Source: Bacteroidota bacterium (GTDB lineage: Bacteria; Bacteroidota; Ignavibacteria; UBA10030; UBA8401). From it: a stretch of 39,845 bases of DNA. Position 1 is the stretch's first letter, and each line of letters starts with the position of its first letter. Shown here one piece after another: positions 12,927 to 20,951 of this stretch. Below the pieces are notes generated by a model. That model did no database searches, was not told the DNA's origin, and worked only from the letters and a program-made list of their open reading frames with translations. Location of the stretch: the NCBI GenBank assembly GCA_013361065.1, contig JABWAK010000016.1, positions 1 to 39,845 of the forward strand. Reading direction: 5' to 3'. The position numbers and the translations under genes are program-made.

Positions 12927-14933
<2,007 letters not shown>

Positions 14934-14964: not shown

Positions 14965-16968
14965 ATGGACCTGAATCAGATCGCCTTCATCCTCTTCTTC
15001 CTTGCTTCCATGACCTTCTTCGCCATGAGTGCGAAGCGGCTCATCGCCACGCTGCAGCTCGGGAAGAAGGAGGACCGGTTCGGTGATATCCCGAAACGAT
15101 TGAAGAATGTGCTCACCATCGCCATCCTGCAGACCAAGCTGCTGCGCGAACCGGTCGCCGGCACGCTGCACCTGCTCATCTTCTGGGGATTCCTGGCACT
15201 CTCGCTGGTGGTGGTCGAATCGATCCTTGAAGGACTCTTCGGGCATTTCTCCTTCGCATTCCTCGGCGGCGCCTATTCCGTCATCACCTTCTCACAGGAG
15301 ATCTTCTGTCTGCTCGTCATGATCGGCGTGCTCGGCTCCCTCTGGCGCCGCTTCGTCACGAAAGTGCGCCGGCTGCAGGTGGATGCGCACGGCAGCCGCG
15401 ATGCGGCGATGATCCTCAGCTGGATCTTCCTGATCGTGACAACCACGCTGTTCCAGAATGCCACGCGGATCGCCGTCGGCACGTACGAGGCAGGGATGGG
15501 ATTCCCCGTCTCCTCGCAGCTCGCATCGCTGTTCGGCTACGACCAGTCCACGTACCTCGCCGAACGGTTCTTCTGGTGGGCGCATATCGGTCTGGTCTTT
15601 GCCTTCCTGAACTATCTCCCCTATTCGAAACATCTCCATGTGCTCACCTCCATCCCGAACGTTTTCTTCGCTTCGCTGAAACCGAAAGGGGCGCTGGAAC
15701 CGATCAATCTGCAGGATGAGACGCTCACCAAGTTCGGCGCATCGGACATCGAGGATCTCACCTGGAAGCAGCTGCTGGACGGATATACCTGCACCGAATG
15801 CGGCCGCTGTGAATCGGTCTGTCCGGCGAATCTCACCGGCAAACCGCTCTCACCGCGCAAGATCATCGTCGATACGCGGCACCGCACCGCCGAGAAGGCG
15901 CCGGTGATGCTGGCAGGTCAGCTGGAGGCGAATGCAGCCGTCGCGGAGCATACGCTGCTGGACAAGTTCATCACGGAGGAGGAACTCTGGTCCTGCACCA
16001 CCTGCATGGCCTGCGTGAACGAATGCCCGGTGATGATCGAGCATGTGAACGAGATCGTCGACCTGCGCCGCTCCCTGGTGCTGAACGAATCACGCTTCCC
16101 GGCTGAAGTCAAGACGGTGTTCGACAATCTCGAACGGAACTTCACACCGTGGGGCTTCTCGCACTCCACCCGCGCGGACTGGGCGGAAGGACTCAACATC
16201 CCGACGATGGCACAGGTCGGCGATGCAAAGAATGTCGACGTCCTCTTCTGGGTCGGCTGCGCCGGTGCGTATGACGCGCGCTATAAGAAGGTCTCCGTCG
16301 CCTTCTCCAAACTGATGCAGCATGCCGGCATCTCCTTCGCCATCCTCGGCACGGAGGAGAAATGCAACGGCGACGCCGCGCGCCGGATGGGGAACGAGTA
16401 CCTTGCCCAGACGATGATGGCGGAGAATATCGAGACGCTCAACCGGTACAATGTGAAGAAGGTGGTCGCCACCTGTCCGCACTGTTTCCACTCCCTCTCC
16501 AAGGAGTACCCGCAGCTCGGCGGACATTTCGAGGTGGAGCATCATACCGAGTTCCTCAACCGGCTGGTGGAGGAAGGGAAACTGAAGGTCGCGCCGGAGC
16601 AGAAGAACAGCCAGACCGTCACCTATCACGACTCCTGCTACCTGGCCCGCTATAACGATGTCACCGAGTCACCGCGCAGCATGCTGCAGGCGACCGGCGC
16701 TCAGCTGGTGGAGATGCCTCGGACGAAGGACAAAGGACTATGCTGCGGCGCCGGCGGAGGACGGATGTGGATGGAGGAGCATCACGGGAAGAGGATCAAT
16801 ATCGAACGGACCGAAGAAGCGCTCGCGACCGGTGCATCCACCGTGGCATCCGCCTGTCCGTTCTGTCTGACCATGGTGAACGACGGCGTGAAAGCGAAGG
16901 ATGCCGCAGAGAAGGTCCAAGTCCGCGACGTGGCCGAGATCCTGCTGGATGCCATCGAACGGAAGTAA
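14965..16968 (+). CDS. Membrane-anchored Fe-S oxidoreductase (HdrD/GlpC-like, EMO type)
   Basis: The 667-residue protein is a fusion in the order NarI-like membrane domain (about 1-235, five or more helices), a ferredoxin dicluster with C276/C279/C282/C286 and C344/C347/C350/C354, and two cysteine-rich CCG domains (about 425-515 and 550-640; C593-C594 in LCCGAGGGRMW). This architecture is that of heterodisulfide-reductase-like proteins that move electrons between a soluble donor, often an electron-transfer flavoprotein, and membrane quinone (EtfAB:menaquinone oxidoreductase). No etfAB genes lie nearby in this window, so the donor is unknown. A GGAAGGA site precedes the ATG. The physiological direction cannot be read from sequence. 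Confidence 0.88.
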   Translation: MDLNQIAFILFFLASMTFFAMSAKRLIATLQLGKKEDRFGDIPKRLKNVLTIAILQTKLLREPVAGTLHLLIFWGFLALSLVVVESILEGLFGHFSFAFLGGAYSVITFSQEIFCLLVMIGVLGSLWRRFVTKVRRLQVDAHGSRDAAMILSWIFLIVTTTLFQNATRIAVGTYEAGMGFPVSSQLASLFGYDQSTYLAERFFWWAHIGLVFAFLNYLPYSKHLHVLTSIPNVFFASLKPKGALEPINLQDETLTKFGASDIEDLTWKQLLDGYTCTECGRCESVCPANLTGKPLSPRKIIVDTRHRTAEKAPVMLAGQLEANAAVAEHTLLDKFITEEELWSCTTCMACVNECPVMIEHVNEIVDLRRSLVLNESRFPAEVKTVFDNLERNFTPWGFSHSTRADWAEGLNIPTMAQVGDAKNVDVLFWVGCAGAYDARYKKVSVAFSKLMQHAGISFAILGTEEKCNGDAARRMGNEYLAQTMMAENIETLNRYNVKKVVATCPHCFHSLSKEYPQLGGHFEVEHHTEFLNRLVEEGKLKVAPEQKNSQTVTYHDSCYLARYNDVTESPRSMLQATGAQLVEMPRTKDKGLCCGAGGGRMWMEEHHGKRINIERTEEALATGASTVASACPFCLTMVNDGVKAKDAAEKVQVRDVAEILLDAIERK

Positions 16969-16977
16969 CCTTCCGTT
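16958..16977 (+). terminator. Weak hairpin overlapping the stop of the Fe-S oxidoreductase gene
   Basis: AACGGAAG (16958-16965) and CTTCCGTT (16970-16977) form an 8-bp stem with a four-base loop that contains most of the stop codon. Only GTTCT follows, so termination would be weak. Confidence 0.3.
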
Positions 16978-17207
16978 GTTCTGCAGCAATGATGCTGCCG
17001 TTCCAAAAGAAGCATTGTGAGTATCGAACACCGGTGCGTCGTTATACCGGTGTGCACCCGTATATTCACCTGTGTCATTCACTCTTACAGCCGCCGGAAT
17101 GCCGGTGTGGCGCAGCACACATCCCAGCCGGAGGATGGCGCAACAATCGACGGAATTGAGTATCTTTTTTCAATGAATCTGGGCGTGCCGGACGGCGACC
17201 GTTACCG

Positions 17208-18188
17208 ATGACAACAGACGAAACCATAGAACCCAAGGAACATCTCCCTACTCCCGAAGAGCGGATGCTCTGGTTCGCCGAGTATGAACGGGTAAAGAAG
17301 GTCCCTGACGTCTGTAAGAAATTCGGCATCAGCCGGAAGACCTTCTACAAATGGTGGAAACGGTACAATGCAGCGCAGCAGAAGCCGGAGAGTCTGGCGA
17401 ACCAGTCCCGCAAACCGCACCGCAATCCCCGCGCCACGCCCGACCATATCGTACAGAGACTCAAGAGTCTGCGGGAGCAGACCGGGTTCGGACAGAAACG
17501 TCTGCAGCTCTACCTCTCCCTCTGGTACGGTATCGAGCTTGCCGAGAACACCATCTGGAAGATCCTCCGGCGCAGCGGCATCGACATGAAGGAGACGAAG
17601 TCCCGCCGGCGGAAGGTGAAACCGCACGAGCCGCTCCTGCCCGGGGACCGGGTGATCATCTTCGTGAAACCAATGGAGAAGCTGATCGGCAAACAGCGCT
17701 ACTTCTACTATGCCGCCATCGATGAGTGCACGCATCTGCGCATCGCTCATCTCTATGCGCGGCATTCCACTCTTTCCGCGCTCGATTTCGTGCAGTACCT
17801 GCTCACGTCGTTCCCGTTCCCGGTCCATTACATCCACACACCGCTGGACAATGCGTTCACCAGTATCGCGCATTCCCGTTCGCGCACCCATGCGTTCACA
17901 CAGAACCTGCGGCGCCTCGGCATCAAGCAGCATATCCCGACCCGGAAGCAGTCCCAGTCCAAACTCTACAACGAACGGATCCGCCGCTTCGACTCCCCGG
18001 AGGTCTTCATCACCTTCCCGTTCAACAGCATCGTGGATGCGGAACGGATGGTGAACAACTATCTCTTCGATTACAACAACAATCAACCGCGGAAGGAGAT
18101 CGGGATGGTGACGCCGCTGGAGAAGCTCAAGAGCTTCGAACAGTTCGCCGGCACACCCCCCTTCCAGCCCAAAAAGGAGAACGGATGA
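17208..18188 (+). CDS. IS481/IS3-like integrase homolog, apparently catalytically dead and domesticated
   Basis: The 326-residue protein aligns by eye along its length with integrase-core transposases. It has an N-terminal helix-turn-helix (VCKKFGISRKTFYKWWKRYN, about 34-53), a second HTH-like linker (about 75-125) and an rve-type core (about 140-275) with IDECTHLRIAHLY and ALDFVQYLLTSFPFP. The catalytic acids appear lost. The expected aspartate of the V-x-I-D-V-K strand is F152 (VIIFVK), and the TDNG motif reads TPLDN at 211-215. A glutamate (E256) remains near the third position. There are no terminal inverted repeats or target duplication in sight. The gene overlaps the following lipoprotein gene by four bases (ATGA). 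An intact but inactive frame suggests reuse as a DNA-binding protein. Confidence 0.8.
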   Translation: MTTDETIEPKEHLPTPEERMLWFAEYERVKKVPDVCKKFGISRKTFYKWWKRYNAAQQKPESLANQSRKPHRNPRATPDHIVQRLKSLREQTGFGQKRLQLYLSLWYGIELAENTIWKILRRSGIDMKETKSRRRKVKPHEPLLPGDRVIIFVKPMEKLIGKQRYFYYAAIDECTHLRIAHLYARHSTLSALDFVQYLLTSFPFPVHYIHTPLDNAFTSIAHSRSRTHAFTQNLRRLGIKQHIPTRKQSQSKLYNERIRRFDSPEVFITFPFNSIVDAERMVNNYLFDYNNNQPRKEIGMVTPLEKLKSFEQFAGTPPFQPKKENG

Positions 18189-18991
18189 ACACTTCCCGTC
18201 AAGGACCCGCCCGATACACTGCATCCGTTCCATCCGCTGTTCCGCATCCCTTCGTCCGTTCCTTCCCGCTGCTGTTGCTCCTCCTCGCTCTGTTCCTGAA
18301 CAGCTGCGGTTCCTCGTACCCTGCACCGGGAGTGGACGGCAAGAAGTACCGGTACATTTACCTGCTCTCCGAGCCGTCCGTTTCCCCCAAACTGGCGTTC
18401 CAGGATGCGAATGTCAGTTTCACGTTCACGGTGGACGATGCGGCGATCTCCTATACCATGCTGAGCCTCACCCGGAAGGATGTCTGGGTGGAATCGGCCG
18501 GCGCCACGTTTGTCATGGACAGTCAGTACATCCCGGTACGGAACATCATGAGTCTGTATTCGGACAGCGTGAAAGGATTCGCGCCGCTGTATGTCGCGCC
18601 GCGCGGATATCTGCAGGACATCATCATACCGCATCAGCATATCCGGTGGGATGAGGACGAAGGATGGAAGGAGAAGGACATCTTCCCGACGCTGGACAGC
18701 GGAACGGTGAGCGGCCGAGCCCGCATCGCAAAGAATCTCGGTAAACAGTTCGAGCTCCACATTCCGGTCCTGATCGGCGAACGCCGGAAGGTCTATAAGT
18801 TCGTCTTCAAGGTCTCCGCCATCAAGGTCGTCAGTCCGGATGCACCGGTCGCCGCGAAACAGCGTCCGCCGGCACCGGACCTGGACGGCGCTTCCTCCGG
18901 ACTCTGGTACTCCCTGGGACTGATCGGAACCACTGCCGCGGTCACCAGCGCCATTGTATTGTATGTAACGGGACAATTGCCGTTGAAGTAA
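18185..18991 (+). CDS. Lipoprotein of unknown function, coupled to the integrase-like gene
   Basis: The 268-residue product begins with a long basic N-region, then a hydrophobic stretch (PLLLLLLALFLNSC) ending in a lipobox with C41. The mature part has a beta-rich region (about 55-220), and a C-terminal hydrophobic helix (about 239-260) precedes the end TGQLPLK. No family is recognised. The ATG at 18185 follows AAGGAGAACGG and overlaps the stop of the integrase-like gene, so the two are translated together. A strong terminator follows 35 bp later. A lipoprotein coupled to a transposase-derived protein is not an arrangement I know. Confidence 0.75.
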   Translation: MNTSRQGPARYTASVPSAVPHPFVRSFPLLLLLLALFLNSCGSSYPAPGVDGKKYRYIYLLSEPSVSPKLAFQDANVSFTFTVDDAAISYTMLSLTRKDVWVESAGATFVMDSQYIPVRNIMSLYSDSVKGFAPLYVAPRGYLQDIIIPHQHIRWDEDEGWKEKDIFPTLDSGTVSGRARIAKNLGKQFELHIPVLIGERRKVYKFVFKVSAIKVVSPDAPVAAKQRPPAPDLDGASSGLWYSLGLIGTTAAVTSAIVLYVTGQLPLK

Positions 18992-19026: not shown

Positions 19027-19061
19027 AAAAGGTCCTTTACCGTCGGTAAAGGACCTTTTTT
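19027..19061. terminator. Strong bidirectional terminator after the lipoprotein gene
   Basis: Arms 19027-19041 and 19045-19059 are a perfect 15-bp match (AAAAGGTCCTTTACC) with a three-base loop and flanking A- and T-runs. It ends the lipoprotein transcript on the plus strand and the tRNA-Gly transcript on the minus strand. Confidence 0.92.
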
Positions 19062-19138: not shown

Positions 19139-19284
19139 GTAGTCAAAAATTCTAAACAAAACTGGCGAAATTCTTTAACTTGAGAATAGTTTGTGATTGT
19201 ATAAATATATCAAACTTAATATTTAACTATATTGATGAATATTACTATCAGCATGCTCATCACATAGAATATACTCATTTTTTT

Positions 19285-20817
19285 ATGAAATATAAAACAT
19301 GCTATTCATTAGTATTTTTGTTGTTGATCAATGTTGGTTTTTCTCAATACAAATATACAAAAAAAGATTATCCATTTGGGACATATTGGTCGATAAATGA
19401 AATTGGAATAACCTTACAAAACCTAGATACAAATTATTCAAAATTTGGAATAGTCCAAGCTGATTCAATATTGCTGGTTTGGAAAGGTTATAACTATACT
19501 ATTCCATCAAATGTGACGTCGAGTAATTCCTTAAAAAAAATTGAGTTATATGATACTCATTTTAATACATTATTTATTTCGAACGATATAAAGCAATCGA
19601 TTCTAGTCCTAAATTCACAAATTGACAATCTACATTTGGTTTCCATTCCATCAGATGACAACGACAAAGGGAAGTACTTACCCAATTTATCAATTATAGG
19701 GAGTAAAATCGTAAACTTTTTATTTTTACCTTCGACAACGACAACTTTTGCGGAAAATATATATTTCGGGGGAGATACGATAGGAAGAACAGATGTTGTT
19801 TTATCTAATATTGTGTTTCTTAAACCATTTACTCTTTATCGCTCTTCAATTAAATCGTTTTTTCAACTCAACGATATTAATTTTCGATTGGGGGCGGATT
19901 TCTCCTACACGGTATTTGATCATGAAGCGAATTTTATAAACATTAGCTTTGAGAATAAAACAGATTTTTCCAATTCAACATTTAAATCGTCCAGCTATTT
20001 TGACAAATGTTCTTTCAAAGATACTTTGGCATTTATCAATAGTTCAATCTCCAATCAATTGGATTTAAGAAACTGTAATTTAGATTCATTGTCCGTGTTG
20101 TATCTCGATCAATTGAATTACGACAATGGTCAACTATTTGTATATTGGAACCAGATAAAAGGAACAATTAAACCAAAAATCCAGCTTTTCTATTCCGACA
20201 GCAACATACAACTAAACTATTCACGCATTGAGAATATATATCATAAACTAAGAGATAATTATTTGTCTCAAGGGAATAAACAATCAGCTGATGAGGTGAT
20301 GTATGAATTAGCTTGGCAAAAGGATCTATTACTTGGCGGATTTTGGCAAAGCATGAATGGCTTTTTTCTTGGCTATGGCTATAAACCTTTTAGACTTGTT
20401 GCCTTTTTAGTAATTCCATTAATCCTTTTGTTCAGTTATGTATGGTATAAGTTTTTCTATCATGAAATATACACAATCTGTATAGAACAACAGCCCGATA
20501 AAGACGTTATTACAAAAAAAGGATTCTTTAAAACAATTCCGTTTAAGCTATTTTTTAAGTTTAACTTAACCTTACCAATATTTAATCATCAAGTTTATGG
20601 TCATCCGTTAATTAGAAAACTCCTGTATTCTCTACATTTTAGCGCTTCCGTATTATTAGGCTTTAGAATTAAAACATCTTGGATCAGAGTTGATAATAAA
20701 TGGTTTTTATCTGTTATGGTAATTGAATACATGTTTGGGAAAATACTTTATGTGTGGTTTGCGTTTACCATTGAAAATTCACAATTTTCATTAATAAAAA
20801 GTCTTTTCGAATTTTGA
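19285..20817 (+). CDS. AT-rich secreted/membrane protein with pentapeptide-like and channel-like parts
   Basis: This 510-residue protein is encoded in DNA far richer in A and T than everything around it. It has a signal peptide (1-20, cleavage near GFSQ), then a beta-rich region with pentapeptide-like repeats at about 205-275 (ADFSYTVFDHEANFINISF, then FSNSTF...FDKCSF). The helical motif YHKLRDNYLSQGNKQSADE (319-337) follows, then a membrane helix at about 380-398, a basic cytoplasmic stretch and a C-terminal pair of hydrophobic segments (about 455-470 and 483-500). This order resembles pentapeptide proteins fused to a two-helix potassium-channel-like domain, but the TVGYGD selectivity filter is missing (LHFSASVLLGF instead). 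I use ATG 19285 because it begins the signal peptide. Its composition and its place next to a tRNA suggest horizontal transfer. Confidence 0.75.
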   Translation: MKYKTCYSLVFLLLINVGFSQYKYTKKDYPFGTYWSINEIGITLQNLDTNYSKFGIVQADSILLVWKGYNYTIPSNVTSSNSLKKIELYDTHFNTLFISNDIKQSILVLNSQIDNLHLVSIPSDDNDKGKYLPNLSIIGSKIVNFLFLPSTTTTFAENIYFGGDTIGRTDVVLSNIVFLKPFTLYRSSIKSFFQLNDINFRLGADFSYTVFDHEANFINISFENKTDFSNSTFKSSSYFDKCSFKDTLAFINSSISNQLDLRNCNLDSLSVLYLDQLNYDNGQLFVYWNQIKGTIKPKIQLFYSDSNIQLNYSRIENIYHKLRDNYLSQGNKQSADEVMYELAWQKDLLLGGFWQSMNGFFLGYGYKPFRLVAFLVIPLILLFSYVWYKFFYHEIYTICIEQQPDKDVITKKGFFKTIPFKLFFKFNLTLPIFNHQVYGHPLIRKLLYSLHFSASVLLGFRIKTSWIRVDNKWFLSVMVIEYMFGKILYVWFAFTIENSQFSLIKSLFEF

Positions 20818-20951
20818 TTATCCGATTTCAGAAAGCAAATTATCTCTATACTAAACATTCCTAACATCCATTCAATAAAAATGGGAAACTTTTTCCCTTG
20901 ACCACAGGTTCTATTCAACAACTCACCTATCACTAATTCAGGGAAAAACCG

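What the first reader, a model, noticed from the sequence alone, without database searches (positions are those of the whole stretch)
17208..18991. Apparently domesticated, catalytically dead integrase coupled to a lipoprotein
The integrase core aligns with IS481/IS3-type enzymes, but the first aspartate is F152 and the TDNG motif has become TPLDN. The frame is intact and its stop overlaps a lipoprotein start by four bases. No terminal repeats are visible. An exapted DDE protein that may now only bind DNA, made together with an exported lipoprotein, is not a system I recognise.
Basis: partly seen in the sequence, partly recalled or inferred. Interest (0 to 1): 0.68.

Follow-up and report, generated by a model that had tools for sequence, protein, structure and literature searches.

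The report
Ancient domesticated dead IS481 integrase
A jumping-gene enzyme that lost its DNA-cutting ability long ago has become an ordinary, strongly conserved single-copy gene in an order of Ignavibacteria-like bacteria, where different lineages have kept the whole protein, only its DNA-binding half, or only its dead enzyme half.

Summary
Window 17208-18188 is an intact 326-aa IS481-like integrase with D1 changed to F152, the TDNG motif changed to TPLDN, no inverted repeats and no second copy in the genome. Its stop overlaps a lipoprotein start (ATGA).

The domestication is real and much older than the window shows. Orthologues sit in 18 of 22 genomes of the same family (53-94% identical in the main clade), and every complete one is catalytically dead. 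Selection is as strong as on the neighbouring Fe-S gene (omega 0.048 versus 0.043), equally on the helix-turn-helix (HTH) half and the dead RNase H half.

Across the order the gene has come apart in two directions. Family f6 and part of f2 keep only the HTH half, through about four losses of the core; two f2 genomes still carry core relics behind the stop. Family f5 keeps only the dead core, with up to four paralogues. On the core tree 34 dead sequences form one side of a branch against 8 intact relatives (support 100/98).

The lipoprotein link occurs in two sister species only; the conserved neighbour is the upstream Fe-S gene. Most likely role: a DNA-binding regulator whose ex-catalytic domain became an interaction or sensing domain. 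That role is inferred; no operator was found.

The parts
17208..18188 (+). Catalytically dead IS481-type integrase, 326 aa, single copy
   Evidence: open frame; NF033577 144 bits, below cutoff 224; single copy; orthologues
17253..17573 (+). N-terminal DNA-binding half: HTH_28/HTH_23 (residues 16-55) and second HTH (residues 79-122). ISRKTFYKW recognition region nearly invariant. This half alone survives in f6 and part of f2
   Evidence: Pfam; AF2 helices; alignments
17643..18131 (+). RNase H-fold (rve) core, residues 146-308, without catalytic triad. This half alone survives in f5
   Evidence: AF2 pLDDT about 93 over the first strands; Foldseek IstA and retroviral integrases
17661..17663 (+). 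D1 position, now F152 (never D in the full-length dead forms)
   Evidence: alignment with intact relatives
17841..17843 (+). D2 position, now P212 (P or K in family f1; no catalytic D in any of 34 dead-clade sequences)
   Evidence: alignment
17973..17975 (+). E position, E256 kept here, D/K/other in several orthologues and in core-only forms
   Evidence: alignment
18185..18188 (+). ATGA stop/start overlap with the lipoprotein
   Evidence: sequence
18185..18991 (+). Lipoprotein, 268 aa, adjacent only in G000 and G094; homologues elsewhere in the order
19027..19059 (.). Perfect 16-bp hairpin downstream of the lipoprotein, probable terminator between the pair and tRNA-Gly (the scan's T-run rule was met on the - strand only)
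14965..16968 (+). 4Fe-4S/CCG (HdrD/GlpC-like) membrane protein, the conserved upstream neighbour of the dead integrase in most of family f1
14085..14933 (+). DUF4905 gene, part of the same conserved block

Best explanation
The gene is a host gene descended from one IS481-type transposase captured early in this bacterial order. It has lost transposition and is inherited vertically. Shown: loss of the triad in the whole clade, single copy in nearly all genomes, purifying selection on both halves, and reciprocal loss of either half in different families. Inferred: the two helix-turn-helix motifs bind a chromosomal site as a transcriptional regulator, and the dead RNase H domain serves as a dimerisation, sensing or partner-binding domain for co-transcribed functions (the Fe-S operon in the window's family; exported T9SS proteins and a response-regulator/histidine-kinase hybrid in others).
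For: One copy per genome and no IS copies (G078 has three paralogues). No catalytic D2 in 34 of 34 dead-clade sequences, D1 absent in all full-length forms; D1 and D2 intact in 8 of 8 outgroup relatives. Dead clade separated from active relatives at 100/98. Omega 0.048 for the whole gene, 0.040 HTH, 0.044 core, against 0.043 for the Fe-S neighbour; HTH-only 0.03-0.24, core-only 0.06-0.27 where dS was measurable. Sister species G002 (full length) and G001 (HTH only) in the same gene block, and core relics behind the stop in G004 and G005. HTH-only proteins match NCBIfam IS481 (best hit of the member shown in full) and all 12 core-only proteins match it. Recognition-helix residues ISRKT.YKW invariant in f1 and nearly so in the HTH-only forms. 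Core folds as integrase RNase H. Operon-like spacing: Fe-S gene within 20 bp upstream or overlapping in several f1 species, TIGR03790/T9SS gene within 60 bp upstream in f2/f6, T9SS cargo - core - RR/HK in f5 g40.
Against: No conserved operator was found upstream. The gene neighbourhood differs between families, so a single regulon is not shown. Core-only proteins keep no recognisable DNA-binding domain, so a purely DNA-binding role cannot be the whole story. No expression or binding data exist here.
Confidence: 0.6

Rival explanations
1. A decaying IS481 copy that happens to be still open: a dead passenger with no function, with the lipoprotein overlap a coincidence.
For: No terminal repeats and lost catalytic residues, as in old IS remnants.
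Against: Orthologues in 18 of 22 genomes of the family with conserved gene order; omega 0.048 at dS 0.71; an unconstrained core with 27% of bases changed would carry about four stops (1.6% stay open in simulation).
Confidence: 0.02
2. The protein is still an enzyme, using relocated acidic residues (D172, D214, D262) for metal-dependent DNA chemistry, such as nicking or hairpin processing.
For: D172 and D214 are invariant and D262 nearly invariant in family f1.
Against: D172 is also conserved in intact relatives beside their own triad, so it is probably structural; D214 and D262 are not conserved across f2 and the core-only forms.
Confidence: 0.06
3. The dead core is the functional module: a protein-protein or nucleic-acid-binding scaffold working at the membrane, export or signalling level, and the HTH is an older half being lost.
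For: Core-only family in f5 with up to four paralogues, a new N-terminal long helix, and operon-like order with a T9SS cargo and a response-regulator/histidine-kinase hybrid; ex-active-site loop TPLDNxFTS refashioned rather than degraded in f1.
Against: HTH-only descendants are retained in f2, f6 and G040 after about four core losses, and the HTH is the better conserved half between families.
Confidence: 0.22
4. The integrase and the lipoprotein form a dedicated two-gene system.
For: ATGA overlap in both G000 and G094; both genes under purifying selection.
Against: The pair exists in only two sister species; other lipoprotein homologues are unlinked, and the gene persists in many genomes without it.
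Confidence: 0.07

Closest known systems
IS481 family transposases (NCBIfam NF033577)
   Same: Same domain order (HTH - second HTH - rve core - C-terminal YNxxRPH..LgxxTP-like motif); profile match of all three forms (full length, HTH only, core only)
   Different: Catalytic residues lost, no inverted repeats, no multiple copies, vertical inheritance, family score below the curated cutoff
Imagin, a Ginger1-derived integrase-like gene of crustaceans (PMC12863088)
   Same: Single-copy DDE integrase-like host gene under strong purifying selection with the catalytic triad lost
   Different: Eukaryotic, multi-exon, Ginger1-derived with H2C2 zinc finger; its abstract reports no split into separate halves
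TldR, TnpB-like nuclease-dead repressors (PMC13418256)
   Same: Bacterial transposon protein whose nuclease was inactivated and which became associated with non-transposon genes
   Different: RNA-guided, RuvC-type TnpB rather than a DDE integrase; uses a guide RNA, whereas this has HTH domains
Transposon-derived transcription factors of metazoans (PMC10027918, abstract only)
   Same: Transposase DNA-binding domains reused as regulators
   Different: Animal families; not IS481-derived bacterial genes

Membership tests
Active IS481 insertion sequence | DDE triad | tested here: not met
   D1 is F152, D2 is P212; lost in all full-length orthologues
Active IS481 insertion sequence | terminal inverted repeats around the gene | tested here: not met
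   no inverted repeats in 16960-18260
Active IS481 insertion sequence | mobility: several copies or variable position between close relatives | tested here: not met
   one copy; same Fe-S/DUF4905 block across most of family f1
Active IS481 insertion sequence | score over the curated family cutoff | tested here: not met
   144 bits against 224; the ordinary IS at C2 scores 290
IS481 lineage by descent | IS481 domain architecture and integrase RNase H fold | tested here: met
   full-length NF033577 match E 5e-42; AF2 and Foldseek to IstA and retroviral integrases
Domesticated transposase | vertical inheritance with conserved gene order | tested here: met
Domesticated transposase | purifying selection on the coding sequence | tested here: met
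   omega 0.05-0.10 in f1 pairs where dS was measurable
Domesticated transposase | a demonstrated host function | not testable with these tools
   needs genetics or biochemistry
Transcription regulator | sequence-specific DNA binding to an operator | tested here: inconclusive
   HTH conserved, but motif searches found no convincing operator

The most novel reading that the evidence does not exclude
A bacterial host gene family made from a dead DDE integrase has been dismantled in opposite directions in sister families. The DNA-binding half became a stand-alone regulator in some lineages. In others the ex-catalytic RNase H half became a multi-paralogue signalling or scaffold protein without this DNA-binding domain, in operons with T9SS cargo and a sensor kinase.
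Probability: 0.5. Interest if true: 0.75.

Novelty: new variant of a known kind. Interest (0 to 1): 0.62.

Why it matters
Domesticated dead transposases are well documented in eukaryotes. The bacterial cases met here (casposase to Cas1, TnpB to Cas12 and TldR) are not DDE integrases. This family offers a graded series within one order: dead full-length protein, relic core behind a stop, clean core loss, and core-only, with intact relatives outside the clade. It makes testable which half of a transposase is worth keeping and why, and whether a catalytically dead integrase fold can become a regulatory or scaffold domain.

Tried and rejected
Decaying-IS reading: rejected by selection and synteny. 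Conserved lipoprotein coupling: rejected outside two species. HTH partner encoded separately in core-only genomes: the weak hits looked at in G038 and G054 are ordinary IS3-type OrfA/OrfB genes, so no partner was found. Operator search by palindromic and plain motif finding: scores exceeded crude shuffles, but the best sites fell inside coding sequence or among closely related species, so nothing convincing came out. Viral carriage: no relative in viral contigs, with only two search patterns used. Defence-system models: no hit for the window gene. Solved structures by sequence: none. The core tree does not reject all full-length forms as one side of a branch (p-AU 0.144), so the exact branching point of the core-only clade is unsettled; shared tilS adjacency in f1 g5 and f5 supports orthology.

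Full report
Observation. The protein is IS481-like along its length but scores 144 bits against a curated cutoff of 224. It is the only copy in the genome. The same genome holds one ordinary IS481 with intact motifs (LTDRGTEY, HPQTNGICERF) scoring 290 bits, which serves as an internal control.

Orthologues and inheritance. In 98 genomes of the order, the gene was found in 18 of the 22 genomes of the window's family, the window's own included: 53-94% identity in the main clade and 34-37% in genus g2. A nineteenth, G091, has only the first ~50 residues before its contig ends. It was not found in G085 or in the small genomes G087 and G088. In most of them the gene follows a DUF4905 gene and a 4Fe-4S/CCG membrane protein. 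In several species the Fe-S stop and the integrase start overlap or lie within 20 bp. The tree of the core follows the genus groups. One full-length sequence in another order (G260) sits in the same gene block and may be a transfer or a binning error; it does not affect the conclusion.

Dead everywhere. Relatives outside the dead clade (G013, G577, G205, G155, G336, G197, G536 and the genome's own IS) keep D1 and D2, and E where the sequence reaches it. In the 34 dead-clade sequences the D2 catalytic position is never D. D1 is lost in all full-length forms but survives in five of twelve core-only forms. E is variable. Active and dead sequences are separated at 100/98. Selection on the window gene against its sister species is omega 0.048: 0.040 for the HTH half, 0.044 for the core half. 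The upstream Fe-S gene gives 0.043 and the lipoprotein 0.146. The ex-active-site region of family f1 is not eroding: it has new invariant residues (T211, D214, F217, S219, H228-T231) and a conserved HSTLxALDFxQ helix.

Two-way dismantling. In family f6 (most genomes) and in part of f2 only the first ~125 residues survive, as genes of about 141-171 aa. In f2, sister species G002 (318 aa) and G001 (141 aa) carry the gene in the same block, after a TIGR03790 T9SS protein and before an EamA-like transporter gene. In G004 and G005 the core survives only as frame-broken relics behind the stop codon. The HTH tree needs four to five changes between full-length and HTH-only forms, so the core was lost repeatedly. 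In family f5 the opposite happened: genes of mostly 220-260 aa (a few with longer frames) hold only the RNase H core with a new N-terminal helix, up to four per genome. No HTH half was found in those genomes; G040 is the one f5 genome with an HTH-only form instead. All twelve core-only sequences match the IS481 profile, and so do all eight HTH-only sequences. Core-only genes of f5 and the full-length genes of f1 genus g5 sit next to tilS, with hpt and ftsH beyond, which supports orthology (hpt and ftsH named from their sequences). Both reduced forms are under purifying selection.

Mechanism. The ISRKTFYKW recognition region and the survival of the HTH half alone argue for sequence-specific DNA binding as a retained function. 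The survival of the core alone argues that the dead RNase H domain also acquired a role. In f5 genus g40 the core gene lies 9-19 bp after a T9SS-sorted protein and 8-84 bp before a response-regulator/histidine-kinase hybrid. Genes with T9SS-like tails are immediate neighbours in 16% of cases against 6% background; these cases are not independent, so this is only suggestive. I therefore favour a one-component-like regulator whose second domain became a sensing or partner-binding domain. Direct evidence for binding or regulation is missing, and motif searches failed.

Lipoprotein. It belongs to a family with homologues across the order (three in the window genome) but adjoins the integrase only in G000 and G094. 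It is a lineage-specific neighbour, probably co-transcribed, and not part of the core finding.

Comparison. Dead, single-copy, selected integrase-like genes are known in eukaryotes (Imagin, PMC12863088), and nuclease-dead TnpB regulators are known in bacteria (TldR, PMC13418256). A review of mobile-element recruitment in prokaryotes (PMC8987985) contains no mention of 'DDE', and its transposase passages concern casposase and Cas1. My literature searches found no bacterial DDE integrase domesticated in this way, but the library holds open-licence papers only.

Noticed in passing
window 19140-20850: An AT-rich island (32% GC against 57-60% around it) with a 545-aa pentapeptide-repeat protein lies beside tRNA-Gly; the sister genome G094 lacks that gene at this place, so it looks recently acquired.
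   Followed up: partly
G000:C2:16322-17281 (L110): An ordinary IS481 element with intact catalytic motifs, flanked by the inverted sequences CATCTGACA / TGTCAGATG, in the same genome.
   Followed up: partly
L121, L122, L125, L127 (family f5 genus g40): Conserved three-gene order: small T9SS-sorted secreted protein, dead integrase core, response-regulator/histidine-kinase hybrid.
   Followed up: partly
L060, L063, L064, L065, L067, L072, L073, L078: A TIGR03790-like T9SS protein sits directly upstream of the HTH-only or full-length gene in f2, f6 and f1 genus g2; the window genome keeps its only TIGR03790 gene elsewhere (C199).
   Followed up: partly
L128 (G260:C81): A full-length dead integrase with the family f1 gene block in a genome assigned to another order of the class: horizontal transfer or mis-binning.
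   Followed up: no
window 18185-18991 and G000:C104, G000:C196: The lipoprotein belongs to an unnamed family of about 250-270-aa proteins spread through the order with no Pfam match for the window member.
   Followed up: partly
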